A DNA stretch of 64,000 nt, from the NCBI GenBank assembly GCA_022478985.1, contig JAKSZP010015888.1:117386-181385 (forward strand). Reading direction: 5' to 3'. The number at the start of each line of letters is the position of its first letter. Within the stretch, counting starts at the first letter, position 1. This document shows, piece by piece, positions 15,046-43,635 of the stretch. The notes under the pieces were generated by a model, which saw nothing but the letters and a program-made list of their open reading frames with translations, searched no databases and was not told where the DNA came from. The position numbers were made by a program, and so were the translations under genes. This DNA comes from Massospora cicadina. Lineage: Eukaryota > Entomophthoromycota > Entomophthoromycetes > Entomophthorales > Entomophthoraceae.

Positions 15046-15831
15046 TGGGCAGAAAATTTACACATATCCTTCTAATGAACTATGCCCCTGGCTAACTGTC
15101 AGGAGCGCTGACCACACCTCATCCTTTGAATTATCCATATAAGCTGCACAATTGATCAATCCTATAAGCTCCTCCATTTATTTGGCTAGCATCCCTATTC
15201 CTTTCTCAGATCCTGCAACCATCCTTCTAATTCTGAAGGTAACGCATCCACCACCTGGGCTAATTAGAGCAAGAAAGGGGATACCCCTCCTATTGCCTGT
15301 GCAACTGCACCTAGAAGCGGAATTGTTCAATTACCTGGTGAATTTTGTCCAGTGCCTCCATGGACAATGTCACACAACTGTTTGGTGATTTGGCTTTTAC
15401 CAGGAATTCCATGGATTGTGGGGTTGCCACTCCACATGATTGCCCCACCTCACACAACAAAAATGCCAGTAAACCCCACCATAACTACAGTCAGCAAATG
15501 TTAGTTCCACTCCTCTCCACTGGAGACCTCCTCCTCCTCCCAGGGCACCCATAAAAATGGAGAGGAAGGTATTTGAGTTTTGTTTTATGTAACAGGTAAG
15601 CTTGTACTATTAGTGATGAAGAAGTTGGGAGGTATAACCATGTCACAGACCACATGACTGATAACCTGGCGGAAATCCACCATCAAACATGTGTGCCATT
15701 CCTGGATGTTGTGATGTATTCCTAGACTATGGTTATGGTGATGCTGAACATGAGCAGCAGTATCTGACTCCACAATAGTGCTGAAAATGAGGCCAATTCC
15801 TGGGCCATCTCACTCATCAAGCTTATCTTTT

Positions 15832-15847
15832 TTTTAGTACTAGATGG
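15832..15847 (-). mobile_element. Ultra-short retroposed insertion, copy 1
   Basis: A 16-nt insert, read on the minus strand as CCATCTAGTACT followed by A4, lies between exact 15-bp duplications (15817-15831 and 15848-15862). The unique part is only 12 nt. It shares its 3' end with four other inserts in this window. Confidence 0.8.
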
Positions 15848-15862
15848 TCAAGCTTATCTTTT

Positions 15863-16970
15863 CCAGTTTGATTTTAAATAATTTTAAATAAACTTATAAA
15901 TGATTCCAAAGCTAGAAAATATTTATTGATTTTAATAAGAATTTTCTTATAACATAAAACTGAATTATCAGTTACCATTTTCCCTTTTTATAGCATTGCA
16001 AAGCCCACTTGACTAGGCTTCTTTACCACAGGATTTTGAGCGATGACTAGATCATCATATGTGAAAGCTCCATACCTTAATGAATCATTATTTGGAGAAT
16101 TTAGGATTCCAGTTGTGCCTTATGACATATTAGTTCTCATTCCCAACTTTCTAATTCTTACCTATGACCCCATTCTCAATTCATTCCTCCTTCAGCATGG
16201 AATTCTCCAACTCAACATTCAGATTCATGGCAGAATCTGAGATTCCATCCACTAGGTCAATGTGCAGACCAAGCTGAGCCTGATCCATCACAGGAGGGGC
16301 TCTATTGGGCTTTGCCTTAGTGTAGTGAAGCCTTAACTTTGGGTTTCTGAACTAGTTATCAATTTAATAATATTCAATTTCTTTTATCATTATTATTCTA
16401 GAAGTTGATTGATTTATTGGGTCAAAGGTCCTAAACACTACTAACTTTAAGTTATATGGCATCAAGCATTTAAGTTAATAATAATAAGTTCTCAAACAAT
16501 CGTACTTGGGATAAGTTGCTTCTGATAACCACTGTTGTATAACCTAGGGTGATCTCTCTATCTCGTTAATTAATCTTAGCCTTTATTTCACTAGCACTAT
16601 AAAGGTGCTAATCATTCTGCCTATAAGCTAACTTTACACCTTTGCCATTATTATTAAGGCTCTCTTAGTTGAAATTCATATTCTATTTGACTTTTGAATT
16701 AAGTGTGGTTAAGCACCTAACTAACAATTATCTTTTTGGGACCTTTGAACCAAAAGTGATCAAGTCCCTAAATAATAGACAAGACTTGGAACATTTGCCT
16801 CTACCTTGCCAAGTTATATTTTAACTTTATTGTCCAAGTTGGTGAGCTTTAAAGGACCTGCCTTCAGATGACCTACCCTCAAGTCTGACAACTGTTATAA
16901 TGTTTCACATTAAAAGAACGTATAACTAGCTCTGACATTGATTATATTAGCAAACAATATTTGTAGAGGA
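15863..16970. other. AT-rich intergenic DNA
   Basis: No gene, repeat boundary or RNA gene recognised. Minor open frames only (for example 16043-16240) with no motif. Confidence 0.5.
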
Positions 16971-17252
16971 GGGGAGGGTGCCTCAGTGGGAGAGCATGGG
17001 CTCAATGACCATTGTCTCCCCGGTTTAATCCCATTAGATGAACTTGAGTAGGTGATAATTATGCCTGTGTCAGCGTTGCACACCAATACCCTAAACTGGA
17101 TAGCAAATCAGGTCCAAGGAGTTCCTGGTCTAGCAGAACGCTGTGCATGAAGGTTTACGGGATTTACCCTTCTTTCCCCTCTAATTTGATTTCCCCTTTC
17201 ATACCCTTAGTCAGTACAGTATCATCCTCAGATTGGCCCACCTTGAATAAAT
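16971..17252 (+). repeat. SINE-A copy 1 (tRNA-derived)
   Basis: The head has a tRNA-like A box (CTCAGTGGGAGAGCATGG) and B box (GGTTTAATCCC). The body is shared with 23175-23500 and 50036-50310 (for example GGAGTTCCTGG and a TTGGCCCACCT tail). Polymerase III type head plus a family tail define a SINE. The target duplication is not clean. Confidence 0.75.
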
Positions 17253-17310
17253 AAACATTAGAAGAGGAAAGTGGACAGAGATTTAAACTTGGAATCCCCG
17301 TTGAATTTGG

Positions 17311-17484
17311 ATGCTAGTCAAAATAAGCCATCTAGATTTTAAATTGATTGAAATGGTTGAGCTGTCTCGATCAAGCCATGCAAGCCAACTTGAGACTAGT
17401 ACCCCGCACGCAATACTCCAGAATTTCATCACAAATTGCTTCAGGTCTGCACTATCGCAGGTGTCTAGCTTGCTGGGTCATTAA
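17311..17484 (+). CDS. Small ORF or terminal exon, unknown
   Basis: A 57-codon frame (MLVKISHLDFKLIEMVELS...) ends in QVSSLLGH and TAA. It has mixed polar and hydrophobic content and higher GC than its surroundings, like the exons of the CNOT9-like gene nearby. Since introns here are very short, it could be the last exon of a plus-strand gene whose earlier exons I cannot place; the SINE just upstream complicates this. It could also be chance. Confidence 0.25.
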   Translation: MLVKISHLDFKLIEMVELSRSSHASQLETSTPHAILQNFITNCFRSALSQVSSLLGH

Positions 17485-17641
17485 AAGCTATATGTGAGGG
17501 AGACACTTGTTGCAATTCCTTTTAATTTTTGTATATAGATAAAGTTTTCTATTAATCTTTTAAAGCCAAGCAACAATTTTTTAAAAGGGTAATACGTCAG
17601 TTACTATTCTCTCCTATTTGTCAATTAAAAGCCTTTAGATT

Positions 17642-17662
17642 GGGACCATCTAGTACTAAAAA
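17642..17662 (+). mobile_element. Ultra-short retroposed insertion, copy 2
   Basis: The 21-nt insert GGGACCATCTAGTACT plus A5 lies between exact 15-bp duplications AAAAGCCTTTAGATT (17627-17641, 17663-17677). The target reads TT/AAAA, as preferred by L1-type endonucleases. Confidence 0.85.
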
Positions 17663-18204
17663 AAAAGCCTTTAGATTTTAACCCAATATATGGAACTTGG
17701 ATTTTCCCAAATAAGGGAAGAACTGAAGCTTTACGAGGTAACTTATGATTAAATAACTAGTGGGGAAAATTTTTAAATAAAAAACATTATACCAGGCTAG
17801 TAGAGAATATAAATTGGGAACAAAATTAGCTTTAAAAATCCCACACTAGATAAGCCTTCTTTAAAGTTGCGTTTCTTCTTTCTCACATAAGACAAAAGGT
17901 TTCATTTTAACATTACCAGATTTAGTTAACAAAGCCTAGTGGTAAATAAATAGCTAGAGGAATGTGTAATTAATCTTTTAATACTCAGTAAAAATTGATT
18001 TTAGAAACTAAGCACATTCGGTCTATAAGATTAGATCTCGTAATACGGGAAGGCAATCAAATTATTTCTTAGGTGAGTAAGCATAATACCAAAAAAAACT
18101 TCACAACTAGAATAAACAATTGGGGAAAGAAATAAGTTGTAGAGGAAGTAAGCACCTTGAAAGGTAGCGTTAGGAGGTACCCTCTAATATTGGGCGACCT
18201 GGGG

Positions 18205-19529
18205 CTAACGTCGAGTGTGAGAAAGAATCGTAGCAGAGGTTCTATACAATAAATTATCTAAAGAGCGTTTAGCACTAATGTCATCAATCAAAAAATGCCC
18301 AAATGTCCCATCTCTAATGGGGAGAGGAAGGTTGTGTTTGAGATATTGGAGACAGCTATTGATGATTAATCAAACTAAAAATGGAAGTACCTGGGGTTAT
18401 CAGCTAGACGAGAGTAAATATAAACAAGGTTTTTATGAAAGCGGGTCTTCCTGTTAGCCGTCGAGACGGTTAACGCCTCAAGCGCTCGGATGAGATGATG
18501 CAAGCGCTCATATGAATTACAAAAAAAGTCAAGCCCTTCCTTAAGATACAGAACCCTTTGTAGTATCATCAGAGCTATCTATGTTTCAAGTCAATATTAA
18601 ACATAGCTTTTGATGTACCACACGCTGAGATTCACTAAAACTGGTCATAACTTTAATGCATAGCGGTAAAATGTCAGTAGTAACAAACAAGTCGGTCATT
18701 TTTATAGTAATATTCTAAAAGCAAGGGATTAGGTAAAAACTACAACCAACCTTGGATAGCACAGCAAACACGCCAAGGGCCGAAAGCCTGACCATTTCAT
18801 ACGGCCTTGAATCAAATTGACTTCTATGAATGGAAACAGCAAGGTGGGAAGCTGAGCTTCAAAAATTAGTGGTTTAGACAGCAAAAAAAATACAGCAACA
18901 CAAGGGAACCTTCGTCTGGGGATGATTTCCCAGTAGCTGAAGTAGCCCCATGACGTAGCCAATGTGCTTCGCATGACCAAGATCAAGATTTGGAGGGTCG
19001 AGCTTGGGATAAAAGGCGATTAATTCTTGCACCATGCATGCAGTCACTCCTTAAAAACTGCATTTAATTCAAAAGCCGCGCACTTGCTGAAAGGCAAACT
19101 AAATATAGAGGGCAGAAACTAAATTTACCGAAAGAATGCCACAAGACCAAAGGCAGATTTTCATACAGCTCTCGCGCTTCGAACAGCTTTTGGAGCGCTT
19201 GAGCCCGTTTTGGCGGGCTTAAAAACTCCTGCACCCAGTGAAAAATGTTCTCCTCGGCAACAAACTAACAGCGGATCAATAAAACGCGTTACAAATTAGG
19301 CAGCTTGAGCATTGGGAGGAAAAATGAGGTTTTAATAAAAACTCACAAATAAAAGTCAATTGCACAAAAATACCTTATTGCTCTCTAATTCTGAAGCTCT
19401 TCGCTGGAACCCATGCAAAGCAGCCCGGGTATTAAAAACAGATTGATAATGAGCATGTTGGATGGGGTTTGGATAGGCAACCTCTTGCTTATTAGAGCGC
19501 TGTAATGAATGCATGCTGCCGGGGTACAT
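18205..19529 (-). CDS. CCR4-NOT subunit CNOT9/Rcd1/Caf40-like, seven exons
   Basis: The family is the armadillo-repeat CNOT9 subunit of the CCR4-NOT deadenylase, acting in mRNA decay and translational repression. Proposed exons (minus): 19529-19374, 19264-19129, 19049-18902, 18856-18751, 18714-18622, 18578-18391, 18355-18205; 978 nt, 325 aa, no internal stop. Introns are 109, 79, 45, 36, 43 and 35 nt, all GT-AG. Landmarks in family order: FHWVQEFLSPPKRAQALQKL, LPLVLWHSFG, LLQLLGNHPQTK, SRPYEMVRLSALGV, TTDILPLCIKVM, NSYERLHHLI, YSRLADNP, and a C-terminal IRDGTFGHFLIDD. Length is close to the usual ~300 aa; the extra residues are N-terminal. The protein is far more divergent than CNOT9 normally is. 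Around exon 4 another frame (LPTLLFPFIEVN) also looks family-like, so a pair of compensating indels there cannot be excluded. The start is the first in-frame ATG. Confidence 0.8.
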
Positions 19530-23174: not shown

Positions 23175-23500
23175 TTTTAAATTTTACTCAAGGTGGGCTG
23201 GTCTGGGGATGATAATGCACCAATTAATAGAATTGAAGAAATGGTAAAGGAGGGGACCATCTAGTACTAAAAAAAAAGAAATGGTAAAGGAGGACAAAAC
23301 CCAGAAAACCTCCATGTCCAGTGTATGATAGAACAGGAACTCCATGGACCGCCTTTGCTATTTGTTATCTTGGTTTGGGGCATTGGTGTGCAATGCCAAC
23401 ACATTTATAATTTTCCCCTACCCAAAGTTCATCTAGCAGGATCAAACTTGGGGAGGCAGTGGTAGTGAGTCTATACTCTACCACTGGGGTATCCTTCCAT
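23175..23500 (-). repeat. SINE-A copy 2
   Basis: Same family as 16971-17252 and 50036-50310, on the minus strand. It is flanked by a 16-bp exact duplication AAAACAATTGCATAAT (23159-23174, 23501-23516). The B-box region (GGATCAAACTTGG on the plus strand) and the tail next to TTTTACTCAAGGTGGGC are visible. The SINE body is interrupted by ultra-short insertion copy 3. Confidence 0.88.
23254..23275 (+). mobile_element. Ultra-short retroposed insertion, copy 3 (inside SINE-A)
   Basis: The 22-nt insert GGACCATCTAGTACT plus A7 lies between exact 18-bp duplications (23236-23253, 23276-23293). It is nested in a SINE, so the duplicated bases can be recognised as SINE sequence present once in the other SINE-A copies. 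Confidence 0.88.
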
Positions 23501-24304: not shown

Positions 24305-25402
24305 TGTTGGGATTTTTGTCCACCTTCTCAGCTGTCTAGATTGCCATGGATTTATAGGGGATAATTCCCTATAGAGAGTGAATTGGATATTGGTTAACCA
24401 CAATTTTGGGTTAATACTGTTTGGGGGATTTTAAGCAATTTGCCAGTTCTTATCCGTTGAGGATCAATCCAGGTGAATAATTAAGATCTCACCAGGCATA
24501 GTTGCTGATGAAATGGGGCATCTAATAGTTGATCAATGATTAACTATCAGGTGTACCAATTGGGATTGGTCAGGTTTCATCACCGACCAATTTTGAAATT
24601 TAAGGAGCAGGTTGTGAGGCAAGTGATGCCACATGAAACTAGCGAATCAGTCAGTAGGTTTGCGACCTGCTATAATGGGTAATAAGTCCCATTACCTAAG
24701 CAGGTCACTTGCCAAATATGGTTATTTAGCTGGGATTGAGTAGAAACCGCTAGGGATACATTTTTTGACTCTTTCCATTTTTAGGTCTCAAAGTTGTCTG
24801 ACGGTGAAATCCTAACCAGGATGGGGAAGACCATTGCTGAAGAGATGACAAAGGGCAATTCAATGGCAACAGCTGCCGTTTCATCACTTAGGCGCCAACT
24901 GAGGACTGGGCACCAAATTCTCTCTATAAATTCCCCTGAGAATTCACTTAATAAACAACATACTTCAGCAGGATTCATTATTAGTCTAGTTATCTTAAAG
25001 GAAATTATTGCCATGTGCTTTAATTGGAGACTCTTCAATAGGATAAAGAGTAAGTATTGAGGATCCTGAGAAGTGAAGCTGAGCTGAGATGGGAATTTCT
25101 GCCAACTTTGTGTCACCAGAGGAAAGGCCATAAACTAGTATCTAAGTGTGGATCAAGTTATGTGGATAAGGGTCATAATCCCTACTGAGGAAATCTAGAG
25201 TATTTTGAGGTAGAATACTGGTCAAGCATTGGATCAGAAATTAGGGGATGTATTCAACTATAGATAATAGTCTTCATACTATTATCAATTATATATCATA
25301 TATCATCAGACAATGTGAAGAGCGCACAAACCAAACCTGTTCAGTTAAGCAATTAGGGGTTAATATCTGTGAACGAGCAGCAAAGCCCCTAGATTTTTAG
25401 CA
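24305..25402 (+). repeat. E3 5' LTR
   Basis: 1098 bp, TGTTGGGA...TAGCA, with TATAAAT at 24925-24931 and AATAAA near 24950. It aligns with 32122-33157 throughout and more distantly with the E1 LTRs. Confidence 0.88.
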
Positions 25403-25404
25403 AT

Positions 25405-25422
25405 TGGTGCTCACTACAGGGG
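25405..25422 (+). other. E3 primer binding site
   Basis: TGGTGCTCACTACAGGGG, identical to the E1 site, 2 nt after the LTR. Confidence 0.7.
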
Positions 25423-25453
25423 GTTGTAGTTAAGTAGAATATACTAGGACAAG

Positions 25454-26960
25454 ATGTTGTACAAGGATGAGCTAAGAAAACTCTTGATGGAGTTGGCAAC
25501 TGTCAACAAGAATGCCTTGAATTCTGCAGATCATCAAAAATTCGCTGCCTTGGAGGACAAAGTTACCAAGATTGAGGAAGGAGTCGAAAAGGTTGCTAGT
25601 TTCAGCAAAGAGTTACTAGGAAAAGTAACATCATTAAAGAAAAAGGAAGGGGATTTAGTGCAAGAAGTATTATTCTTGAAAATGGAATGTCAAGCATATT
25701 GCATTTGATTACAGGCATTCAGTTCAGATATAGAGTGGTTGATTGAGAAATTCAAGGAGTTGAAGACTCACAAACGTGAATGTGAGCCCTACGCGGAGGC
25801 TGACGCCAAAGAGAGGACCCTGAGAACTCCAGTTGAAAAGCCAACTATTCCACAAAATATGCCGCCTGCATTCACAGCCATTATGGAGGTGACTTCCAAA
25901 ATTACTCCTCAACTTAGTCGAGTATTTATTTAACTGAGGTAAGCTGACCAGGGGATGGGCAACAATGAAATACATAAATGGATAGGGGAGGTGAAGTGTA
26001 ACTAAATTAGGCACCCCATAGTAGACGAGCTACCCTGTTGCCAGCTGGTACCGCCAGGTATGGGGGTTGATTGTGCTACTTTGAGGGGGTTTCCATTATT
26101 ATGGAGCAGGTGTGGAGGAAGGGGTACATGTGCAGAAACCAGACTGAGAACAATGACTTAACGAGCCTTTGTTGCCTCAGCTTCATGTATCAGTACTAGC
26201 CAGGCTTGGAATTGTTCCAGTAGGTGTTCAAGTTAGTTAAGTAGCCAAACCAAGAGTGGTGGCTAGAGAAACTTCAGAAGAATTAAAAGCTACCCTGAAA
26301 TAACCTACTTTTCTTTTGGATAACGCCCATGCATTTTTCCAATTTGACATGACAATGTTCAGTTACAGTGATCATCAAAAGGCTTTGACGGTAATGAACT
26401 GTTTGGACACAAATTGTCAGAACCTAGTGTTACCCCATATAAAGGGGACATCTGGTCATACTCAGAGGCTAAGGAGGCCATTATGAAATAATTTGAAAGT
26501 CCCATGTGCATGTTAAAGCGCAAGCAAGAATTCATGGGAATCCGATTTTAGAAGGATAATTTCTTAGCAAGAATCACCAATCGTTTCTACCAAGAATCAC
26601 AAATTTTGGTTGGAGCAAAAGTGCTAAATGATTCTGATGCATGGATTGCGCTGCAAGCGGCCCTTCAGTCCTATTGCAATTTACATCAGATGTCTTATAT
26701 GTTTGCTACTGAGATTACCACCTCACAGATGGTGGATCATTTGGAGCATTAGGAGCTACCTTCAATGCTCCAAATAGAAGTTTCAAACAGAATCCAGTAC
26801 AAAATTCAAATCCTATAAAGGGGACCAAGGGTTCTAAGGAGTCCAATAATCAAACCATGATGGGAAATAATTTTAAAGAGTTTAAACGGACCAATAAGCA
26901 AGAAAAATGCTAAGACCAGTGTGGAGAAAAAGAACAATTTGCTGTACACTACAAGAAGTC
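25454..26960 (+). pseudogene. E3 gag
   Basis: The N-terminal 84 codons are open (MLYKDELRKLLMELATVNKN), Lys/Glu/Leu-rich and coiled-coil-like, and give the family start used for E1. A second open piece is at 25739-25933. The capsid-like part (26300-26800) matches E1 at 4050-4500 but with many stops. The zinc knuckle near 26910 (DQCGEKEQFAVHY) has lost its first Cys (a stop codon here) and its His. Confidence 0.75.
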
Positions 26961-27248
26961 TAAGTATCAGATCAATGTGGTCCATGTGAAAGGGTCCAAA
27001 CCCACATAGGAGTTGAGAAAAGGGCCTGCAGCCTAGACAGGGAACAGTTTAGAGCTGCGGGAAAACTTGTTCCTCCTGATATATTACATGAAGAAATTGA
27101 CATTAGTGATCTGTTTATTGATGATGATGTGCAGGATCAACTATAACAAGTGGTCAATTTAGATGTGAATGCAGTAACCAGATCTGAAGCAAAGGAGATC
27201 AACCCCAAAATAATTAAGTAAGTTTTTCATCATTATGCATGACAACAG

Positions 27249-27440
27249 ATGGACAAGATTCAAGCTGCAGAGAATCCAGAAGAATTGAATGAAGTCAAAT
27301 TATATGAGACAAACCTGTCTATACACTTTAGCACAATCGAGGAACTGTTTTCTGATCTATCAGCGCATTTAATTCACACCCTCAATGAAATTGTATTAGC
27401 AGCAGGGTTGACCAAAAATATCAATATATTTGTCAAATGA
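27249..27440 (+). pseudogene. E3 pol linker across a protease deletion
   Basis: The frame (IQAAENPEELNEVKLYETNL) aligns first with E1 at about 5000-5120 and then, after HTLNEIV, directly with E1 at about 6010 (INIFVKWEQLADMM against INLLVDWEQFADLP). The roughly 0.9 kb that encodes protease in E1 is absent, so E3 could only have moved with protease from another copy. Confidence 0.7.
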
Positions 27441-27689
27441 GAGCAACTTGCTGATATGATGGACAGACAGCAGGAGGAGATGCTAGAACTATTTGACAAG
27501 TATCAGAAAGTATTCGCCCAGGAAGATCATGATTTAGGATGTGCAAGAAATGTAATCCACAAAGTTTACACTGGGAAAAAATTGCCAATAAGAATAAAAC
27601 AAATGAATGGTTGAAGGTGGATGAAGCAGTAGTGGAGGAAGAAATCAGTAAACTAGTGAACCATGGGCTTCTAGTTCCATCATTGAGTC

Positions 27690-28200
27690 CCTAAGTGAGC
27701 CCCAGACTTATTGTGAAGAAGAATAATGGCTCTAATTGGGTGGTGATCAATTATCAGAAGCTGAATAAGATTACAAAGAAGGGTTCATATCCACTACCAT
27801 GAATCAACGATGTTCTTGATCAATTAAGAGAAGCAAAGTACTTCTCCACAATGGATCTGATGTTTGGATATTGGCAAATTGATTTGCCAAGAAAAGACCA
27901 AGAGAAATGCGCAATCATTATCACGCAGGGGCTCTATCAACTGACAAGGATGTCCCAGGGTCTATGCAATGCGCCTGAGACGTTCCAGAGGGCCATGGAC
28001 GCCATACTGAATGGCCTGAAGTTGTCATGCGTCCTGGTGTACTTGGACAATATAAATTGTTCAGTAGGACATTCACTGACCATTTACACCACTTGGAGGA
28101 AGTTTTTAAGTGATTATCTGTGGCTAACCTGAAGGTCAAGCTGAGGAAGTGTCACTTCTTCAAGAAAGAATTAATATCTGGGATTCATAATCAACTCTAG
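27690..28200 (+). pseudogene. E3 reverse transcriptase
   Basis: The open piece at 27851-28132 begins MDLMFGYWQIDLP and includes MSQGLCNAPETFQRAMDAIL. The active-site box reads LVYLDN, with the second Asp changed to Asn, followed by a frameshift. Homologous to E1 RT over its length. Confidence 0.82.
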
Positions 28201-28279
28201 TGGATTGTAGCCACAATCTCAGAAAATTGAGGCCATATATTGAATGGCTGTACCAAAGAGTCTCTGAGATATCCATTTG

Positions 28280-28850
28280 TTCCTTGAAATGGTCAGATAC
28301 TATAGAAATTCTTTCAGATTTTGCAAGAATCGCCGAGCCCCTCTTCCATTTTGTTAAAGGATCAAAAAAGGATTCATTTGGAGTGAAGAACCCAGAGATT
28401 TTTCAATGAATAATGCCAGTATTTAATAACTCTCCAATTTTGAAACATCCAAATTTTGATCAAGAATTTATGATACAGACCAATGCTTCATTAATACCGA
28501 TTGGCGCCATCCTGAGCCAAGAGGGTGAACTGGGGACTAACATCTGGTAGCATATGTGAGCCGGACACCCTCAGCAGCTGCTAGGAATTACATCGTGACT
28601 GATGATGAATGCATTACGGTCATTTACGCCTATAAAGAGTTTTGGGTGTATATCCATGGAATGCACTTCAAAGTAATGATGGGCCACTCCTTTTTGCATT
28701 GGCTACGCAATTTATGAGAACCAGAAGGACAACTGGCCTGATGGGCATTAAAGCTACAGGATTACAATTATGAGATAGTCCAATGAGCTGGAGCTTCTCA
28801 TCATAATGCTGATGGCTTATCAAGGTTACCAATGGTCCAAGTGATATTTA
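28280..28850 (+). pseudogene. E3 RNase H
   Basis: Homologous to E1 6900-7440: IAEPLFHFVKGSKKD, a Q-T-N-A-S block where E1 has Q-T-D-S-S, and a degenerate FKVMMGHSFLHWL in place of the T-D-H-S motif. Two catalytic Asp positions are changed. Confidence 0.75.
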
Positions 28851-28984
28851 GCAAGCAGATGAGATATTCCAGAGAATGATCAAAAGAGAAATTGGGAACA
28901 AGCCTCAAGAAATCCAAGGTTCGCTTTGGAAAGTGATTGAAAACACTGAGATTATGGATGAAAAAGTTTTCAAGATGATTGATG

Positions 28985-30050
28985 GGTAATGATTACTATT
29001 CTCAAAGCCATCAGAAAAAGCAGCTATAGTTTGTGCTGCTGATAAGGTTATCAGGCATGGAGGCCTAAAGAAGATGAACAATCACATTTGCCAGTATTAT
29101 TACTGGGAGTCCATCAACTATGATGTAGCAGATTATCTGGCTTGTTGTGTAAAAATCCAATTGCATAAGCCCCACAAGGTCACGACTGGATACTGACTGG
29201 TCCGCCTGGGATTTGCTTGCATACTGTGTCCATCAATGAGATGGGACCATTAACCATGAGTACAGGTGGAATCAAGTACATCATAGTTACAATTGACCAT
29301 CTGACAAGATGAGTCAAGATGAAGGCCCTTGTGAAAGTAGACACTACAAGCACTGCACAGTTTATCCTAGATCACGTATTATACTGACATGGATGCCCAC
29401 AGGTCTTATGGAGCAATAATGGAACGAATTTTATCTCATGTGATCCTGCAATTGAATGAAATAATGGGGATAAGAGGATTCATGTCTATACCTTACCAGC
29501 CAGAGACAAATGGACTGGTAGAATGGGTCAATGGAACGCTGGCCACAACACTGAGGAAGCTGGTCACAGGGAGAACTTCCGCATGGGGAATGCACCTTAG
29601 TTTGGTGACATTTTCCTACAACATAACTCATCATATGGCGATGGGAAAACACCATTTGAGTTTCTATATGGAAGAAAGGCCACGTTGCCGCCAATTTATT
29701 ATTCAGTGGTGGAACCAACATCAAGGGATGAGTGCCAAGTAGTACCTGACTCAATTGTCAAATATCCTGATTGAAATGCAATTGCAAGCATTTGATACAA
29801 CCTTAAAGAAAAGGATCAGAACAAAAATGATGGATGATAAGAACCAACTGGTTTTATCAGAATACCAAATAGGCGGAAGAGTTGCCTATTGTGATACACA
29901 TGGTTTTGGGAGAGGAATAAAGCTAGATGCATTGTGATTGGATCCATTTGAGATTATTGCCAAGATGGTAATGGACGCCTATTCCATCAAGAACCTCTTG
30001 GATGGAAGGATAGTAAATTAAGTCCATGCTATGTATTTAAAGCAGTGATC
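28985..30050 (+). pseudogene. E3 integrase
   Basis: Homologous to E1 7590-8650. The part at 29389-29742 is open for 117 codons (VIL.LNEIMGIRGFMSIPYQ, then NGLVEWVNGTLATTLRKL with the catalytic Glu). The piece at 29755-29937 continues the C-terminal domain, ending NAYSIKNLLDG-like near 30000. Frames shift several times. Confidence 0.8.
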
Positions 30051-30054
30051 AATG

Positions 30055-30290
30055 AAAAAATGAAAAAGTGTTCCCAAAGGACCGCTGAACCATTTAAATG
30101 GTTATGACCTGATGATTTGGTTTAGTCTAAAAAAGGACCGCTGAACCAAACTAGATGGTTAAGTTTTAAAAAATGAGACCTCTGAACCATAAAAAACTGG
30201 AAGGCCTAAGTATATCTAGGAACCAGTATGGGGAATAAATAGAAAAGATGGACCTCTGAATTGAGTGAAGGTCAAGTCCCATATAAAAAA
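30055..30290 (+). repeat. E3 hairpin-type repeat block after pol
   Basis: Counterpart of 8655-8900 in E1, with the same GGACCTCTGAACC-type units separated by A-runs. Confidence 0.55.
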
Positions 30291-30412
30291 GAAGAAAAAA
30301 GAATGATAAAAATATAAGGAAAAAATAAAAAAAATAAAAACACGTAGAAAAAAAGTTATATTATTATAATATTTTATTAGTTATTCTCAACTAGGGGATG
30401 ATTCCACCTATG

Positions 30413-31541
30413 TCACCTCTTGGGGGAGGGAGGATGGATTGCAGTAGGAGTAAACAAACTGTCAAAATCTATGTGAGATCGGATGCTAGCAATGGCTAGA
30501 CCTACTTGAAGCCAAGTTTGTTGAGCGGAGGCTAATCTCTGCAAGAAAGCAACTAGGGGAAGAGAGATGGAAATGTTGGTAATTGGCAAATGTGATACCC
30601 CAGGTTGGGGAGGGAAGCAACAGAACAAGAGGCAGTTGGCAAATAACCCCAAGTAATCCCAATATGGCACCAGAGCCAGAAGATTGGACTTGAGAGCTTG
30701 CCAACAGGCTTTATCAAGAACATTGGACATGTGAGCCAGCATCAAGAAAGGATACTAGGCAGGGGTTGCCAACTCATGCCCTAATCAAAGCCTTAGGGGA
30801 AGGTACCGATGGGATGTGCCTGAAATGAGATAGTCATTCAGGGAGCAGATGGAATCCTGAAGACAATTACTTTGAGCTTTTTATAAGTGAAAGCAGAATA
30901 AGCGATGGAAACTGGGAGAGGCAGGAAGCTTTGTGGCCCAACTTCAAAGAACATGGCTGGCAAAGCAATGATAATAGGCTGCAACATCTTAATCTAGGAT
31001 GTTTTTGAAATTAAAGGGGTTCAGAGCTATGTATAGAGCCTCAGTTACTTGGGTCCTCAGTTCTACATAGGGGAGTTCAGAATTTTTGCAGTTTCTGATA
31101 ACCAGTTCAGTTGACAGAACAGCTGGTTTGTAATACTGGCTGAGTCAGAAAAGGAACTCCAGAATCAAGTCTGATATGGTGAGGAATGATTAATTGAGAG
31201 TGGAGGGCATTGCTTCCAGAGGTTCAACAATGATTGTAGGAGTATCCTTAAATGGAGCCAAATTTAGGAGAGTTTTAAAGTCTAACTTGGGAATTGATGT
31301 CAGAGGGAGGATTGGTCACTAGATGTTTGAGACAATTGCTAACCTGGTTTCATTGGGTTTGTTACCATCTCTGGTAATTCCATGGAAGGACTTGCTGCAG
31401 GTACTTGACTAAGAGTATGAGTCCTTGGAGGACCATAGAAGAGGCTCTGTCATGCAGTTGACTAATCAGTTGGAAGAGCTAATTGTCTTTATCAGACATG
31501 CTGTCAAGAAGTTGTTAGTATTGAAACTCCAAATTTGACAT
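30413..31541 (-). pseudogene. E3 antisense ORF remnant
   Basis: Same position and orientation as 9018-10157 in E1. It starts at ATG 31541 (MSNLEFQYQQLLDSMSDKD) and its last part is open at 30413-30745 (MLAHMSNVLDKACWQALKSN). The TATATAAGTC block is at 31563-31578 and minus-strand AATAAA at 30378-30373. The middle has stops and frame changes. No domain recognised. Confidence 0.6.
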
Positions 31542-32121
31542 ATGAGCTGGATGATAGGGGGTATGTCAGACTTATATAATAGTTGACATTATGTACTATG
31601 TAATAAATTAAGCTCTAATTTCAGAAAAATTAATCTCAAAATTAATATGATAAGCTCTCTAGAAAAGAATTATGAATGATATGAGCTAAGAAGTTATTAT
31701 AAGAAAACAACAAGAGTGATAAATGAGCATTTTTAATTGTGCCACAAATCAAACATCAATGACAAGAACCTCCTGTCAAGGATGAGGAGAAAAATCAGTA
31801 AATTGAGGAAGCCAAACCAAGGATCCTAAATATGACAATGGGTCATATGCCCTGATAGGGGAAAACTGGATCCCAGGATTAGTATCATCATGAGTAAATC
31901 GATCAGCACAGCACAACAGAAGGTTGTGGGGACCGCTCTCTGAAGAGGTGGTAGCAAGGAGGAAGAGGAAGAGAACCATATGCCGAAGGTTGTCCTGAGC
32001 AGCGTTGAGTACTTATTGACTGTACTCCACTTGAACCCAAGAAGTATTTGACCTGGTGTCTGAAGTGGTATTCTCCTGTACCAATCCTATTATCACTGGA
32101 AATCTAGGCAAGATGGGGATG

Positions 32122-33157
32122 TGTTAAGATTTTTCCACCTTCCCAGCCATCTAGATTACTATGGCAGCTAGGGGATAATTTTCTATAGCAAGTGGGTTTG
32201 ATATTGGTTGGCCCGATTTTGGGCTAATACTGTTTGGGGGATTTTAGGCAATTCTCCTGGTTCAGATACATTAGGGATCAATCCTGGTAAATAATTAAGA
32301 ACTTGTCAGGCAGAGTTGCTGACGAAATGGGGGCATCTGATAGTTGATCAATGATTAACTATCAGATGTACAAATTGGGATTGGTCAGGTTTCACCACTG
32401 ACCAATTGAAATTTAAGGAGAAAATTGCATGGCGAGTGATTCCACCTGCAATTAGCAAACCAATAAGTTGGTTTGCGACATGCTATAATGGGTAATATGT
32501 CCTATTACCTAAGAAGGTCGCTTGCCAAATATGGTTGGTTTACTGGGATTGAGTAGAAAACATTAGGGTCGCATTTACTGACTCTTTCTGTTTTAGGTCT
32601 TGAGGATGTCCTATGACGGAATACTAATCAGAATGGGGAGGACCATTGCTGATAAAACGCTGAAAGGTAATTTAATGGCAACAACTGCCGTTTCATCGCT
32701 GAGGCTCAAATGTGGGTTGGGCACCAAATTCTCTCTATAAATTCCCCTGAGAATTCACTTATAAACAACATACTTCAGCAGGATTCATTATTAGTCTAGT
32801 TATCTTCAAGGAAATTATTGCCGTGTGCTTTAATTGGAGACTCTTTAATAGGATAAATAGTAAGGATTGAGGATCCTGAGAAGAGAAATTGAGCTGAGAT
32901 GGGAATTGCTGTCAACTTTGTGTCACCAGAGGAAAGGCCATAAACTAGGATCTAAGAGTGGATCAAGTTAGCCGGATAAGGGTCATAATACCTCATGAGG
33001 AAATCTAGAGTATTTTTAGGAGGAATACCGGCCAAGCGTTGGACCAGAAACTAGTGATCTACTCAACTATGAATAATAGTCTTCATACTATTATCAATTG
33101 TATATCATATATCATCAGACAACGTGAAGATTGCACAAACCAAACCTGTGCAGTTAT
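32122..33157 (+). repeat. E3 3' LTR, truncated
   Basis: Begins TGTTAAGATTTTT after a purine tract and follows the 5' LTR up to about CAGTTA at 33157; the last roughly 55 bp are missing. The junction with the GC-richer unit is abrupt. Confidence 0.85.
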
Positions 33158-33911: not shown

Positions 33912-33916
33912 TAACT

Positions 33917-35458: not shown

Positions 35459-35775
35459 TTTCAGGAAAAATCTTTTTAAATAGACTTTTTTACTAATTTT
35501 TGTATAAGAGTTGAGGAATCATGACACTCATTTTGCAAAGTGTCCAAATCCACAGGTACAATCAAGAAGGATGGGCACTTACCAGTTTGAGGCAGCAATA
35601 ATAATGCCTAGACGCACCAACCCTAGTTCAAATGAGACAATGGTGGTGGCCCCATAGAGGCTGTGACAAATGGCTTTACATTTAATTAACACTTTAATGA
35701 AACCCACACTTGAATAATTCTCACACATGTAAAATAAAATGGTTGGTCAACTAATTTCAGATGAGTGTCTGTAAC

Positions 35776-37200: not shown

Positions 37201-37477
37201 TCGCGCCCACCCCTGTTTCTACAATATGTATCCTCAACTATGTCATGTAACCATGAAAGATGGAGAACTTTGCAGCTTTGGCTAAGGAGGTGGAACATAA
37301 GGGGTAAACACAACTGCAATTCTCCATTGGTTGAGGTCCAAGAGTGTAGTTTATGTGGTATCCTGTGAATCCTTTGGTTGGCTTCTTTTTCTACAAGTTG
37401 AAGTCATTCTTCTAAGGTAAGAGAGGACTGACTGGGTTTCTATAGTTCAGTAAAACATTCTGAAAGATTCTTCAGTG

Positions 37478-37930
37478 TAATGGACAGGGCTCCCAAGGCC
37501 CAGCCTGCCACTGGCTGTGAACCCAAACCTCCAGATGGGGGTCACTCCCACAAGGGAAAGGGCAATAGCCATACCAAAACCCCAAGGCTCCTATCCAGGC
37601 AGGTAGCCTTTCCAGGCACACTGGGCTGATGTGCGGCAAACTGGCCTCTGTTACCTTGGGCCCACTCTGGCAACCGCCATACTGAAGGGATGGGCACTGG
37701 CTGAGGTGCAACGGACATTGATGTCCTTCCAGCCTCTGGTCACCCACGCCACAGCCTTTGACAAGCTCCCCCAGCCAAACTCCACTTGGCTGGGGTATTC
37801 CGCTTCGCCAGGGCATTGCCATTTCCAAAGGATCTCAGGACATCTACCCCCTTCCTCACTTATGATTGCACCACCATTTGCGCTGAACCAACCTTCCAAA
37901 CAAATAAAATACAGTAATAAATCATCTTAA
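37478..37930 (+). other. GC-rich segment ending in AATAAA signals
   Basis: Markedly richer in G+C than its flanks, with open frames on both strands (37631-37930 plus; 37472-37828 minus). It ends with two AATAAA-type signals at 37899-37925 on the plus strand. Probably part of the same retroposed or retroelement block as 33158-37200; coding strand and product not recognised. Confidence 0.35.
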
Positions 37931-38897
37931 TTGTAACAGGTCTAGCAAATAGAAGCTTTTATTGAGGTGAACTTAAAGTTTAAGATAGAATTCCAAAGCG
38001 ATGTCCACTGGGGGAAACCTATCTTTGAAATATTACCTAAAAAGGTTAAATGTATTGTCGATCATGAGGTGTTTAAAAGCCTCCAGAATTAACGGCGTCC
38101 TTGAAACTTGTCAGTGAATGGGAGAGCCTCAAAATGGATAACCACATAAATATTAATATAATTATCCTGCTATTAATCCAACTAGGAGAACCTCATTGGC
38201 TTAATGGAATTGCACCCATTGACATACCAAAATCTTGTAATTCCCAACTTTACAAGATCCATGTGTGTTCATCAATCATTACATTCAGAAGGGATTCTAC
38301 CACCTAAGCAATCTGGTGGGACACTGTTGAAGTTCCCATGAAACTATGGTCAGGATTCTGCAGCTTTACATAGAAAAAGGTCTTATGAATCAAAACTAGC
38401 TCCCTCAAAGGCAAAACTGTCAGAAATTCACAAAACTAAGGAATGTGTAACAAGAGCTGAGGTAGAAACAAGAGAAGGAGAAAGAAATAGCTTTCATATT
38501 CAGGAACACAATGGAGAAGATGACCATCAAGAGAGTGGTTGTATGTTTTTACCAAGAAGGTAAAAATCTTTGGGGTATAACCATTACATTTCAGAATAGG
38601 ATTATCAGAGTAAAATAATTTTTGTCTAATGTGATGGGTGGAGAATTTTCAAATGTTTACAACACAGTTTGGTAGGAGGGTCCAGTTGAGGACTCAAAAC
38701 AAGAAAGCACTCCAGAGGTATGATTATGGGCTCATTTTCTTGTGTAACAGCTAATTTAATGACTTGAGCCAAAGAAAGGACAACGTTGGAGGCAAGAAGG
38801 GGGTATGACCTCCTTACAGGGCGTAGAGAGACATAAACAAATTATCAAGGTCCAATTATAGTCCATATTGCTTGTAAAGCCAATATCTTCTTTTACT
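37931..38897. other. AT-rich spacer
   Basis: No gene or repeat recognised; a 68-codon ORF at 38101-38307 has no motif. Confidence 0.45.
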
Positions 38898-38915
38898 TCT
38901 AGAAAAAATATTTTT

Positions 38916-38929
38916 TTAGTACTAGATGG
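38916..38929 (-). mobile_element. Ultra-short retroposed insertion, copy 4
   Basis: A 14-nt insert, CCATCTAGTACTAA on the minus strand, lies between exact 18-bp duplications (38898-38915, 38930-38947). On the minus strand the target reads TTTT/AAAA. Confidence 0.82.
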
Positions 38930-38947
38930 TCTAGAAAAAATATTTTT

Positions 38948-40011
38948 AAAATTGCAAATTAGCTTGATGTTTAGAGCTTCTTGGTAATTATCAGAAGCTA
39001 AAGTTGCTTAAAGTATCTTTGCCTGTGTAAATTGATCACTAAATATATAATTATTTCTTTATAATTGTTAGCTTTGTTTCTGCAGAGTCCACAGACATAT
39101 TGACCCTTAGTAAGCCAATTTATGGTAATCTAATCTCTAAACTTTTCTTCTAGGCCAGTTTTAAATTTTAAAATGGTGGCTCCATCATTATCATGCCTTT
39201 TTGCATATAATTTCTCATATCAATCTATTCTAAAAGCCAATTGTTTGGTTTTCATCATTATCACAAAACTTTATATTAAAGAAAGAAGTTTTTGTGGGCA
39301 TCTAATTTTTCAAATTATCATCTAAAAATCAACCCTTTTTATTGTAAACTTTTTTAGTAGATATTAGTTTCATTTCGTCTGATTTATCAGACTGCAATTT
39401 TCAAATGTCACTGCCTTCATTACCTACTTGTTCATTTTTGATCTTTTTTAAATAAGATTAAAATATGTTGCGTCCAGGCAACGCCTTGACCTTTACAAAT
39501 CACAGCATATCATGTTGATTCTCACCAAACATATTATGATAAATAACCACTTTTATCGCCACTGTTGTCCTCACCTCACCCAGCCCCAAAAACAACTTTA
39601 CTAATGCATCCAAACCATCTGGCACTCCTTTAGTGGTCATAATTATATTAAAAAAACCTTCTACTTCCAAGTTTCTTTATTCTTTTTTTGATGATGTTTC
39701 ACTATAAATCTGTCTTTTCAACCCAAGACTCAGATTTTGGAATCTAAGACCATTTGCACCAAAATCATTAATTATTAAATCTCAATCTGGCTGTAAACTA
39801 AAAAGAAAAGGGCGATTTACTTTTATGAAACCAAGACTTGATTTCATAGCCTCACGCTTTCATTTCATAGGGGAACATCACAATTTCTTAACCATGGGTA
39901 ATCTGGGAAAGAAAATGCGCATCAATGTATTAAATGGGATTTTAAGTGGATGGCGCTTACCAAGAATATCCCAGCGTGGATTGAGTGTTGTCTATTATTT
40001 ATCACTTAAAA
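38948..40011. other. AT-rich spacer
   Basis: No recognisable gene. 39470-39640 is slightly more GC-rich but gives no motif in either strand. Confidence 0.45.
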
Positions 40012-40013
40012 TA

Positions 40014-40555
40014 CACAGTGCATTCAAAAAGTTCTGGGACTAACGTTTTAAAGACACAACTTTACAAATAAATAAACTTTCATTTATCATAATTTAACAT
40101 ACAGCCTTTCCCTCTCTATACATATTTATATTGCTAAAACAATTGTTAAAAGGTATGCACATAGTTCCTATTTTGTATAACCATGTTTAAACCAGCTGTC
40201 ACATTCTTCTGAATTGTCTCTACTTAATCAAAAGGATGAACCTTCAGATTATAATTATCCACCCTATTCACCATATTTGGCTCTGTCTGACTTCTTTCTG
40301 TTCTCTAATCTGAAGGTGGCACTGAAGGTTCATCCTTTTGATAAAGTAGAGACAATTCAGAAGAATGCGACAGCTGGTTTAAACATGGTTATACAAAATA
40401 GGAACTATGTGCATACCTTTTAACAATTGTTTTAGCAATATAAATATGTATAGAGAGGGAAAGGTTGTATGTTAAGTTATGATAAAAGAAAGTTTATTTA
40501 TTTGTAAAGTTGAGTCTTTAAAACGTTAGTCCCAGAACTTTTTGAATGCACTGTG
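40014..40555 (+). mobile_element. Palindromic Tc1/mariner MITE
   Basis: 542 bp flanked by TA (40012-40013, 40556-40557). Two 234-bp arms (40014-40247 and 40322-40555) are inverted copies around a 74-bp loop. The tips read CACAGTGCATTCAAAAAG. The plus strand across loop and right arm encodes the C-terminus of a mariner-type transposase (40214-40423: YPPYSPYLALSDFFLFSNLK, ending in TAA). The catalytic Asp of the usual S-P-D-L-A-P is Tyr here. The left arm is an inverted copy of the transposase end, so the MITE arose by inverted duplication of a mariner 3' end. Confidence 0.88.
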
Positions 40556-40559
40556 TATG

Positions 40560-41760
40560 ATCAAACATGACTCAATGGACTACTTGACACCCTGAAACAA
40601 GTGGAAGTTACCTGGATGTCTCATTCAATAAATTTTATTATCAACCTCCCAGTGTCCAAAGGCTTTGATACCCTCACAGTGGTAGTCACTTAATCTAAAA
40701 ATTACTCCACGATCATCCCATGTATTACATTCACTACAACCAAAGATTTTCCCAGTCGTTCATGACACTTTTAGAATGTTTGATGTCTTAAGAGAAGTGG
40801 TCAATAGCCAAGGGCCACAATTCACCTTTAGAATTTGGGAAGTACTTTATAGAAAACTGAAGGTCAGACTGCTTAGGTACTTAGAATATCACCCACAAAT
40901 TACAATGGACAAACATGAAGTACTAACCAGTAACTTAAACTGTATTTTTGATGCTATGCCACTAATGCATGATAGTTTGTACTAACCTTTTGGCAGAATT
41001 TCTAATTATCTTTTTGCTGCACACGTTCAGGTGTGTCCCTCATGTTTGTAAATCTTTATTACAACCCCACTCCTATAGTAGGAACTATGATCTTAGTATT
41101 ATCCCAATTGCAGACTTCACCTCACACATCATAAAATTCTGATAAAAGTTCAAACCAACTTATAAAATCAACAAATGATGCCAAAACAATTTGCTGACAA
41201 GAAGCGAAGGGCAGCTTCCAACTATTAAGTGGGGCCCTGGTTATGGTGGATACTGATAATTTACACCAAAAAGTCCCTTGTAATAACTTTTCCTGCAAGT
41301 TAGCTGGGCAATTTCCAGGTTTTGAAAGGGTTAAATGGGGGTGTTTATGCCTTAGATTGCTGCCCCATTGGAAGGTCCATGTATCAATTCACACTTTCTC
41401 TGTCTAGTAAAAGGTCAAAAACAAGAGGTGGTAGAACAGATTTTAACAGAAGGTACCCCTAAGCTTAAGTTGAGGATACTTTGAGTTTGCAAAAAGTCAA
41501 ATGCGACCTCATCAATAAATTTCTTGAATAGGTACTCATCTTACAAGAGCAACTGTGTTCTCACCAAAGATATAACCATCTTTCAAAAACTAATTAGTCA
41601 ATTCCATGAAACAAATCTCAATTACACTTAATTTCGCCCACTTAAGAGGACTGAGATTGCATAGAAAACTCTCAGTACTTCATATAATCACTCCTTGGTA
41701 AAGGCCATCAAGGTAGCAGTGGACCCTGCCTTCAAGGAAAGGAACATATAGATTACCTGA
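40560..41760 (+). pseudogene. E6: chromovirus integrase remnant
   Basis: Conceptual pieces: NFIINLPVSKGFDTLTVVV (40630-40690, where E4 has SIDFIVDLPCSNGFTVVMVV), then 40776-40985 REVVNSQGPQFTFRIWEVLY and YHPQ, then near 41280-41400 a segment like the post-core G-P-F/HP-x-F-H domain. The first catalytic Asp is Asn and the second (D-x-G-x-Q-F) is Asn as well. Nothing of RT or LTRs remains. Confidence 0.65.
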
Positions 41761-42161
41761 TGCATCTATCATGATGAGCTTAAACTTTCACCCCTTCAGG
41801 ACCAAGAGGGGCACTAATCTATGAGCCTTATTGCTAGTAAAAATATAAGACTTGTTCAACCCTTAACAAGTGATGGATCACCATAACAATTACATTTCTG
41901 AACCACCTAACCCACAAATGGTCACTCAAGCCAAGCCTTAATTATTTTTAATTGGGTTTTTTGTATGTTAAAAGCAATTAAATGTGCACTGGAGTATCAG
42001 GGATGGTTGGGAGCAAAGTGACAAGTGAGATAACTTGCTAAATAAGAGAACTAATTAGAGGACATATTGCTTGTAGATAATTAAACCTGTAAGTTCTTGG
42101 GTTAAAAACTTTACAAAAAATTACAGGAAATTTTTTTGGATAAAATATAAATAAACAATAC
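41761..42161. other. AT-rich spacer
   Basis: Nothing recognised. Confidence 0.45.
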
Positions 42162-42178
42162 TTTAATGAATCAATAAG

Positions 42179-42313
42179 GAGGAGTGGTAGCATAGCAGGG
42201 TGGTTCCTGCTCCACTCTGGGTTGGGTTTTAATTGTTATAAGTTCAAAACCAGCACAGGCTAAAAAACTCAGTGTGGTATAATTGTCTCAAAGTTGACTC
42301 ACCTCGTTTAGCT
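42179..42313 (+). repeat. SINE-B copy 1 (short tRNA-derived)
   Basis: 135 bp with a tRNA-like head (GGTAGCATAGCAGGGTGG; B box AAGTTCAAAACC) and the tail GTTGACTCACCTCG. Flanked by TTTAATGAATCAATAAG (42162-42178) and TTTAATGAGTTAATAAG (42314-42330), a 17-bp duplication with two differences. Confidence 0.82.
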
Positions 42314-42330
42314 TTTAATGAGTTAATAAG

Positions 42331-43635
42331 ATAAGATATTGTCAAAGCAGAATCTCAAGTATAGAAACCTCAAATGAAATATTATAAATACCTATGGTTC
42401 TTCTACATGCTTGAAAATTTAAATCCTATTTAATATACCAGGTATAAAGCCAACACCTTGCTAGTGATAAGATGTTGACGTCTTTATTCTCACTTATAGA
42501 AAACTTACTAAAGAATTTCAAGTTTCAGATAAATTGTATAGATACCATCACCCGCAATACAACAAATAATACCTATGGAGGACCTCATATGCTAGCTCAA
42601 GTTGTAATGGTGATGATGGACATAATGCCATCCTTGAAGGCTTCAAAGAAGATTAGTTTGCAGTAAATATAAAAGGCTTCCAAATAACTTTATATCATGT
42701 GCTATCCTCAATTACTCTTTTTTAATATTTCTACTTTTGCACCAACACTAATTCAAAGCCTTGTTGTCTATAATAATTGTATGGATGCTATGGTATCCAT
42801 GTTTGAAGTTCAGTTTCTCTTGGATTATCATTCTTTTTCAGAAACAATAGGAATTATATAAAGTTTGATATAATACTCACTGGAAATGATATTTGATGTT
42901 TAAGCTATCAAAAAATTAAGCAGCAGTCAGTAAGATAAACCATTTTAAATTTAAAATTTTCAATGTAAGTAGTATTGATAAAAATCCCCCCCATTGGGTT
43001 GGGACCATCTAGTACTAAAAAAAAAAGTAGTATTGATAACACTAGACTACAAAAAAAAGCAAAGTTCACTTTATTTTTACAAAAATAATAAATCCTAACC
43101 AGACTGGGGTTGAAGAACAAGCACTTGCCACCAAAAGGTTATCTTGGCTCTTTGTTCAGCGATTATTATAATTATATTATATTTACAAACTCTATATTTT
43201 ACAAACTCTTCTCTTCAGAGTCTTAACTATTTAGCTATGTACTGGACTGTTTCTTCTTAAAGTAGCCTACTTCTGGGGCATCTACTGACATTCTAAAAAA
43301 TATACAAGATCAGATAAGCTCTACTTTCCCGGATACCATCATCCCATTGCTGAAATGTTTTGATGGAAGCACTCTTCATGCTCATCACTCAAAGCACTAT
43401 AGTTTTTTATAAAAATTGAGGTGAGAGTACAGAAATAAGATCTTCAGTGACATATCATAACATAACTCTAATTACGTCCCTAGAAATTCATAAAAAACAA
43501 AATTGTACTTTTCAGCTTTTTGGTATCCCCAAGATTTTGAACAATTTTATAGGGTTTTTAAGATCTTTTCTATTTACTTCACATGTATTACAGCAATTCG
43601 TGGTTTAAAGGGTTTCTTTCTCTATTTTGCAGTTT
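42331..43635. other. AT-rich spacer with ultra-short insertion copy 5
   Basis: No gene recognised. Short ORFs (42472-42666, 42908-43120 minus) have no motif. Confidence 0.45.
42981..43024 (+). mobile_element. Ultra-short retroposed insertion, copy 5 (longest)
   Basis: A 44-nt insert: about 21 further bases (ending CCATTGGGTT), then GGGACCATCTAGTACT and A8, between exact 14-bp duplications AAGTAGTATTGATA (42967-42980, 43025-43038). It shows that the shared sequence extends upstream, so the shorter copies are probably 5'-truncated. Confidence 0.85.

What the first reader, a model, noticed from the sequence alone, without database searches (positions are those of the whole stretch)
15817..43038. 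Five ultra-short retroposed insertions sharing one 3' end
At 15832-15847, 17642-17662, 23254-23275, 38916-38929 and 42981-43024, inserts of 14-44 nt end in CCATCTAGTACT followed by an A-run. Each lies between its own perfect duplication of 14-18 bp. Independent duplications, both orientations and an A-tail are the hallmarks of target-primed reverse transcription. Three copies have 5' ends within a few bases of each other, and two carry only 12 unique bases. Either a LINE or SINE in this genome terminates so early that almost nothing but its tail is copied, or a tiny RNA is being retroposed. Five in 64 kb implies a very large number genome-wide.
Basis: partly seen in the sequence, partly recalled or inferred. 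Interest (0 to 1): 0.88.

Follow-up and report, generated by a model that had tools for sequence, protein, structure and literature searches.

The report
L1 retrotransposon copying all or nothing
In a giant fungal genome, a jumping gene has left tens of thousands of copies so short (about 12-45 letters plus a tail) that ordinary repeat-finders may miss them; its copying seems either to stop at a small predicted fold near the end of its RNA or to run to the full 6.4 kb, which makes it a natural record of how this copying starts and fails.

Summary
All five exact CCATCTAGTACT copies in the window are A-tailed, between perfect 15-18 bp duplications. The held genome (1.47 Gb; assembly statistics point to Massospora cicadina) has 32,266 exact CCATCTAGTACTAAAA (reversed control 0), about 43,500 net with up to 2 mismatches. 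The parent is an L1-like LINE of about 6.4 kb. Of 105 copies taken by tail alone, 70 lack the 5' arm of a predicted 3' hairpin, 5 are intermediate, 20 contain the hairpin and stop just past it, 10 are long. None was found ending between 34 and 265 nt. Of 40 long copies probed about 4.9 kb upstream, 36 have LINE there; of 20 of those, 18 reach the same 5' start. Length is nearly all or nothing. Best reading: target-primed reverse transcription meets a hairpin close to the poly(A) tail and usually aborts; past it, it runs to the end. The hairpin-containing class may come from trimmed RNA. New variant of a known kind; the length pattern is the surprise.

The parts
15817..15862 (-). Ultra-short insert 15832-15847 (CCATCTAGTACT + A-tail, no further LINE letters) with 15-bp duplications AAAAGATAAGCTTGA on both sides
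17627..17677 (+). Ultra-short insert 17642-17662 (GGGACCATCTAGTACT + A-tail) between 15-bp duplications AAAAGCCTTTAGATT
23236..23293 (+). Ultra-short insert 23254-23275 (GGACCATCTAGTACT + A-tail) between 18-bp duplications AAGAAATGGTAAAGGAGG, inside a SINE-like repeat whose sister copy lacks it
38899..38945 (-). Ultra-short insert about 38916-38929 (CCATCTAGTACT + A-tail) with an A/T-rich duplication AAAAATATTTTTTCTAGA
42967..43039 (+). Longest window copy, insert 42982-43024: 23 nt upstream of CCATC, reaching into the parent's 3' hairpin, plus A-tail, between 15-bp duplications AAGTAGTATTGATAA; 97% identical to the parent LINE over the terminal 34 nt

Best explanation
These are target-primed reverse transcription products of one L1-like LINE about 6.4 kb long. 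Its endonuclease prefers A-rich sites (AARA at the duplication start). Its reverse transcriptase starts on a short A-tail, copies about 12 nt (UAGUACU and CCAUC, read from the tail), and meets a predicted hairpin, GAUG-AA-UCCC...GGGA-C-CAUC, at the RNA's 3' end. In the sample about two thirds of events end before or inside the 3' arm of that hairpin; about a fifth end just upstream of its 5' arm, at CAT(C/T)GATG next to AATAAA; about a tenth go past and nearly always run to the RNA's 5' end. So the family is close to all-or-nothing: stubs or complete elements. Shown: the parent, the duplications, the numbers, the classes and the gap between them in young copies. Inferred: that the hairpin is the barrier, and that the hairpin-containing class is either a run-off from RNA trimmed back to the hairpin or a second block at AAUAAA.
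For: Parent: L002/L004/L006 extend the tail into one sequence. L010 carries ORF1-like, EN and RT frames with Exo_endo_phos, RVT_1 and a sub-threshold zf-RVT match; the best solved relatives by sequence include human LINE-1 ORF2p. L012, L021 and L022 have their own 13-, 15- and 17-bp duplications around 6,072, 6,441 and 6,091 nt. Duplications: 86 of 95 short copies against 0 of 468 mispaired. Target, 70 copies: duplication begins A in 66, A in 59, A/G in 59, A in 46; T in 35 at each of the two positions before it. Classes of 105: 70 / 5 / 20 / 10. Of the 86 short copies with a called duplication, 65 end at 0-12 nt, 1 at 15, 1 at 16, 1 at 23, 1 at 24 and 17 at 26-31. All five long copies with only short flanks are LINE over their 266-282 nt. 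Genome-wide, up to 2 mismatches: about 43,500 net tails, 3,528 body matches at -235, 3,098 at -4883. 36 of 40 long copies have LINE at about -4.9 kb; of 20 of these, 18 reach position 1-11 of the 5' end. Family-specific: in 252 kb, 34 scan entries of this family and no other recognisable short A-tailed family among the 48 remaining entries, although other L1-like families are present.
Against: The hairpin is predicted but not clearly more stable than dinucleotide shuffles (z from -0.59 to 0.04 for four 3'-end sequences; 0.62 for the window copy), and the 30 hairpin-containing copies vary too little for a covariation test (no pair count was run). Nothing here separates RT stalling from short RNA templates. 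The hairpin-containing class ends past the hairpin, which a hairpin block alone does not explain. 5'-junction microhomology is only slightly above chance (22 of 52 against 14.6 expected), unlike 5'-truncated human L1 as described in PMC2912911 (passages). Other L1-like families in the same loci also mostly span much of ORF2, so the lack of ordinary truncation may belong to the host rather than to this hairpin.
Confidence: 0.62

Rival explanations
1. The stubs come from short RNAs: LINE RNA is degraded from its 5' end by an exonuclease that halts at the 3' hairpin (or at bound LINE protein), and the reverse transcriptase copies the leftover about 42-nt A-tailed stub to its end. Class I would be stubs eaten further into the hairpin.
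For: In 18 of 20 hairpin-containing copies the LINE letters begin at CAT(C/T)GATG preceded by 0-3 A, a few nt 5' of the stem. Full-length copies also have sharp 5' ends, so sharp ends look like template ends. Near-chance microhomology and normal-length duplications resemble complete copying as described in PMC2912911 (passages). The R2 study PMC11331408 (passages) proposes template decay as a cause of 5' truncation.
Against: Class I ends are spread over about 13 positions, as expected for stalls in a stem rather than one RNA end. No RNA data were available.
Confidence: 0.3
2. A protein bound to the 3' end (cleavage/polyadenylation factor on AAUAAA, or LINE protein on the hairpin) blocks the reverse transcriptase; removing it is the commitment step.
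For: The hairpin-containing class ends immediately 3' of, or 1-3 nt inside, AATAAA of the parent.
Against: No direct evidence of bound protein; class I ends lie on the other side of the hairpin.
Confidence: 0.15
3. A separate SINE or tiny RNA gene ending in CCATCTAGTACT is mobilised, unrelated to LINE RNA.
For: Most sampled copies are tiny and share one 3' end.
Against: Full-length LINEs carry the identical 3' end; no tRNA or Rfam RNA found in the window; the upstream letters of the hairpin-containing class are LINE 3' UTR letters.
Confidence: 0.04
4. DNA transposon footprints, microsatellite expansion or assembly artefact.
For: Short inserts with flanking repeats can look like footprints.
Against: Duplications of variable length and unrelated sequence, one-sided A-tail, both orientations, an empty site, a reversed-pattern control of 0 and a LINE parent.
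Confidence: 0.01

Closest known systems
L1-clade LINEs (for example human LINE-1)
   Same: Endonuclease and RT domains in the ORF2 region, a separate ORF1-like frame, A-tail, mostly 14-18 bp duplications, A-rich target.
   Different: In human/chimpanzee L1, 16.2% are full-length and more than half are 5'-truncated (PMC2912911, passages). Here 95 of 105 sampled copies stop within about 33 nt of CCATC and nearly all the long ones probed are close to complete.
Stringent-type LINEs with a 3' stem-loop recognised by ORF2 (UnaL2/ZfL2; some plant L1 lineages)
   Same: A predicted stem-loop close to the 3' end of an L1-like element; such stem-loops are described in PMC3747384 and PMC4176376 (passages).
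   Different: Recognition by ORF2 not tested here. In the passages that I saw the stem-loop is not described as a roadblock.
5'-truncated LINE copies in general
   Same: Loss of the 5' part, intact 3' end, duplications.
   Different: In this sample no continuous size spectrum: short classes and near-complete elements, very little between.
SINEs that share a LINE tail
   Same: Short, A-tailed, sharing a LINE 3' end.
   Different: No promoter-bearing body; only about 12-45 LINE letters.

Membership tests
L1-clade LINE (parent element) | Reverse transcriptase of LINE type | tested here: met
   RVT_1 E=8.8e-34; human L1 ORF2p E about 1e-36 among solved chains
L1-clade LINE (parent element) | Endonuclease/exonuclease/phosphatase domain upstream of RT | tested here: met
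   PF03372 E=3.1e-10
L1-clade LINE (parent element) | C-terminal zinc-binding domain | tested here: inconclusive
   zf-RVT 26.6 bits against cut-off 27.5
L1-clade LINE (parent element) | ORF1 with a recognised domain | tested here: inconclusive
   580-aa frame in L010, no Pfam match at 0.01
L1-clade LINE (parent element) | A-tail and target-site duplications typical of TPRT | tested here: met
L1-clade LINE (parent element) | Placement inside the L1 clade in an RT tree | not tested
   Clade taken from best hits only
Stringent-type LINE with 3' stem-loop | Conserved 3' stem-loop | tested here: inconclusive
   Predicted in four folded sequences, not clearly above shuffles; 30 copies too uniform to test pairing
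Stringent-type LINE with 3' stem-loop | ORF2 needs the stem-loop to start copying | not testable with these tools
   needs biochemistry
SINE | Own pol III promoter body | tested here: not met
   No tRNA or Rfam match in the window; inserts hold LINE 3' letters and little else
DNA transposon / MITE footprint | Terminal inverted repeats and fixed-length duplication | tested here: not met
   Duplications of 12-23 bp, one-sided A-tail

The most novel reading that the evidence does not exclude
The genome holds a fossil record of tens of thousands of failed retrotransposition events. The LINE's own 3' hairpin acts as a commitment checkpoint ('escape') for target-primed reverse transcription, after which the enzyme is so processive that truncation is almost absent. 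A part of the stubs may be copied from a 42-nt hairpin-protected RNA remnant, which would make it one of the smallest retroposed RNAs.
Probability: 0.4. Interest if true: 0.9.

Novelty: new variant of a known kind. Interest (0 to 1): 0.8.

Why it matters
LINE copies usually form a spread of truncated lengths, and the cause of truncation is debated (RT processivity, template decay, host repair; general knowledge). Here the spread is nearly replaced by a two-state outcome, with stop points readable almost to the base in tens of thousands of natural events, so the question becomes directly testable. It also means that many insertions (each about 30-60 bp with its duplication) probably escape ordinary repeat annotation (inference, not tested), so LINE activity could be undercounted: about ten short copies per long one in the sample (95 to 10).

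Tried and rejected
SINE or tRNA origin (nothing found in the window). A relation to the Ty3-like elements or Helitron in the window was not seen but not searched for specially. Hairpin support by covariation: alignment too uniform; no pair count was run. Ribosome toeprint at the ORF2 stop as the cause of the hairpin-containing class: considered by counting distances in thought only; it did not fit. G-quadruplex block: considered, not tested. Host by 18S or actin: no answer; the host was inferred from assembly statistics instead. Genome-wide counts of the class II end at base resolution and of GTTGGGACC... did not complete, nor was an intermediate k-mer at -1778. CCATCTAGTACT in papers: two hits on unrelated subjects in the search listing. 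Descriptions of ultra-short or all-or-nothing LINE insertions: searches returned no paper; in the listings of 26, 56 and 125 (titles and abstract starts; passages of PMC11331408 and PMC2912911) I recognised none. The library holds open-licence papers only.
Full report
OBSERVATION. CCATCTAGTACT occurs exactly five times in the window, each time with an A-run and a perfect flanking duplication. The 23254 insert sits in a SINE-like repeat; a diverged sister copy at 50037-50310 lacks the insert and one copy of the duplication, an empty site by paralogy. In the whole held genome CCATCTAGTACTAAAA occurs 32,266 times exactly and 0 times reversed, and 45,614 times with up to 2 mismatches against 2,086 for the reversed control.

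HOST. The genome has 1,469,884,898 bases in 16,968 contigs and contig C1 is 1,107,499 bp. The published Massospora cicadina assembly has 1.488 Gb, 19,694 scaffolds and a longest scaffold of 1,107 kb (PMC9584336, passages). The agreement in longest scaffold makes this fungus very likely; it was not tested with a marker gene, and the scaffold number differs. PMC11105155 (passages) reports a LINE expansion in that species after its Ty3 expansion.

PARENT. Three of the first eight loci (L002, L004, L006) run on upstream into one sequence. L010 shows ORF1-like, endonuclease and RT frames; the RT is L1-like by best hits. L012, L021 and L022 are 6,072, 6,441 and 6,091 nt long with their own duplications of 13, 15 and 17 bp; L022 has an internal deletion in its 3' part.

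SAMPLE. I fetched all 100 places listed (the first in contig order, C1-C7, of 32,266) and added the five of the window: 105 copies, chosen by the exact 16-nt tail and so not by length, but favouring young copies. Classes: 70 lack the hairpin's 5' arm (class I); 5 are intermediate; 20 contain the whole predicted hairpin (class II); 10 are long. One search had put two class I copies (L046, L103) into class II by a chance motif; one search corrects this. The five intermediates (window 43005, L035, L039, L043, L106) were assigned by hand; one search gives 23, 16 and 24 nt for the window copy, L039 and L106 and no exact duplication for L035 and L043.

DUPLICATIONS. 86 of 95 short copies have a flanking duplication with score at least 11 (61 without mismatch): 66 of 70 class I, 2 of 5 intermediate, 18 of 20 class II; 0 of 468 mispaired flanks do. 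The nine weak cases are L035, L040, L043, L052, L053, L062, L083, L101 and L106; L101 has a 15-bp exact duplication that the stricter rule missed. Mismatch over called duplications is 34 of 1,437 (2.4%), so these copies are mostly young. In 70 copies the duplication begins A (66), A (59), A/G (59), A (46), with T in 35 at each of the two positions before, like L1-type endonuclease sites (general knowledge).

ALL OR NOTHING. Of the 86 short copies with a called duplication, 65 end 0-12 nt upstream of CCATC, one each at 15, 16, 23 and 24, and 17 at 26-31. The exact-match caller gave 38 and 37 nt for L033 and L086, from 9-bp matches; with mismatches allowed no called end is above 31. The longest exact run of LINE letters upstream of CCATC in the 95 is 33 nt. 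So I found no copy ending between 34 and 265 nt, with the reserve that nine ends are not pinned by a strong duplication. Five long copies with short flanks are LINE over all 266-282 fetched nt, and all five are LINE at about -4.9 kb (L128-L132). With L010, L012, L021 and L022, nine of ten long copies are at least about 5 kb; L014 ends near 0.5 kb (as L006). Of 35 further long copies chosen from the 100 exact matches listed, 31 have LINE at about -4.9 kb; in all 36 of 40 (L115, L123, L138 and L140 do not; L014 was not among the 40). Of 20 copies, all positive at -4.9 kb, 18 reach position 1-11 of the L021 element; L152 and L156 show no match in the fetched stretch. Genome-wide counts at up to 2 mismatches agree: about 43,500 net tails, 3,528 at -235, 3,098 at -4883. 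Exact counts: 5,785 for a hairpin-plus-tail pattern and 2,059 for a stretch through AATAAA; these need exact letters and undercount.

STOP POINTS. Taking the parent as AAUAAACAUC-GAUG-AA-UCCC...GGGA-C-CAUC-UAGUACU-A(n), the class I ends run through the 3' arm; 38 of the 66 called lie at 0-3 nt. Of 76 short copies with an exact duplication of at least 12 bp, 24 have upstream letters that do not fit the parent forms I listed; some are parental variants, others look like added letters. In class II the LINE letters begin at CAT(C/T)GATG preceded by 0-3 A in 18 of 20 (L032 and L033 differ); boundaries at A are ambiguous. Microhomology at 5' junctions is 22 of 52 against 14.6 expected from reshuffled flanks.

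MECHANISM. Target-primed copying that often dies in the hairpin explains class I and, if the enzyme is very processive beyond, the scarcity of other truncations. Class II needs more: a trimmed template, or a second block at AAUAAA. Weak points: the hairpin is not clearly more stable than shuffles and could not be tested by covariation here. Other L1-like families in the same loci mostly span much of ORF2, so rarity of ordinary truncation may be a trait of this host. The stubs look particular to this family: a scan of 252 kb gave 82 entries, 34 of this family (an insert can be listed once per strand); of the other 48, six have an A-run near the boundary, and I recognised no second short A-tailed family among them. 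The scanned loci were chosen for this family, so this compares kinds, not densities.

KNOWN AND NEW. The parent is an ordinary kind of LINE. 3' stem-loops in LINEs, some plant L1 included, are known (PMC3747384, PMC4176376; passages). Human and chimpanzee L1 give 16.2% full-length and mostly 5'-truncated copies (PMC2912911, passages). I found no description of a LINE with stubs and near-complete copies only, but the library is limited to open-licence papers and the searches were few.

Noticed in passing
L163 (G000:C36:68665-69465), about 245-315: A short stub, its duplication, and then a full-length LINE start directly after the duplication: the same target site seems to have been used twice.
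   Followed up: partly
window 16972-17251, 23192-23498, 50037-50310: A SINE-like repeat with a tRNA-like 5' part (my reading of A/B-box-like letters; ARAGORN finds no tRNA), one copy between 17-bp duplications.
   Followed up: partly
window 2315-11889, 24305-33156, 52755-59965: Ty3-like LTR elements with broken frames (RT, integrase zinc-binding and chromo domains).
   Followed up: no
window 48892-49434: Frame with a Pif1 2B helicase domain, perhaps of a Helitron.
   Followed up: no
window 40011-40558: Inverted repeat, arms of 237 nt at 97%, 74 nt apart.
   Followed up: no
L010 2579-3331: A 376-nt direct repeat near the 5' part of the LINE; its copy number seems to differ among copies.
   Followed up: no
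L011, L013, L019, L020, L023, L025, L027: Other L1-like families (RT roughly 27-42% identical); L011, L019, L020 and L023 seem to end at AATAAA without a long A-tail.
   Followed up: partly
window 44092-44253: Weak similarity (33% over 54 aa, E=0.011) to the LINE's ORF1.
   Followed up: no
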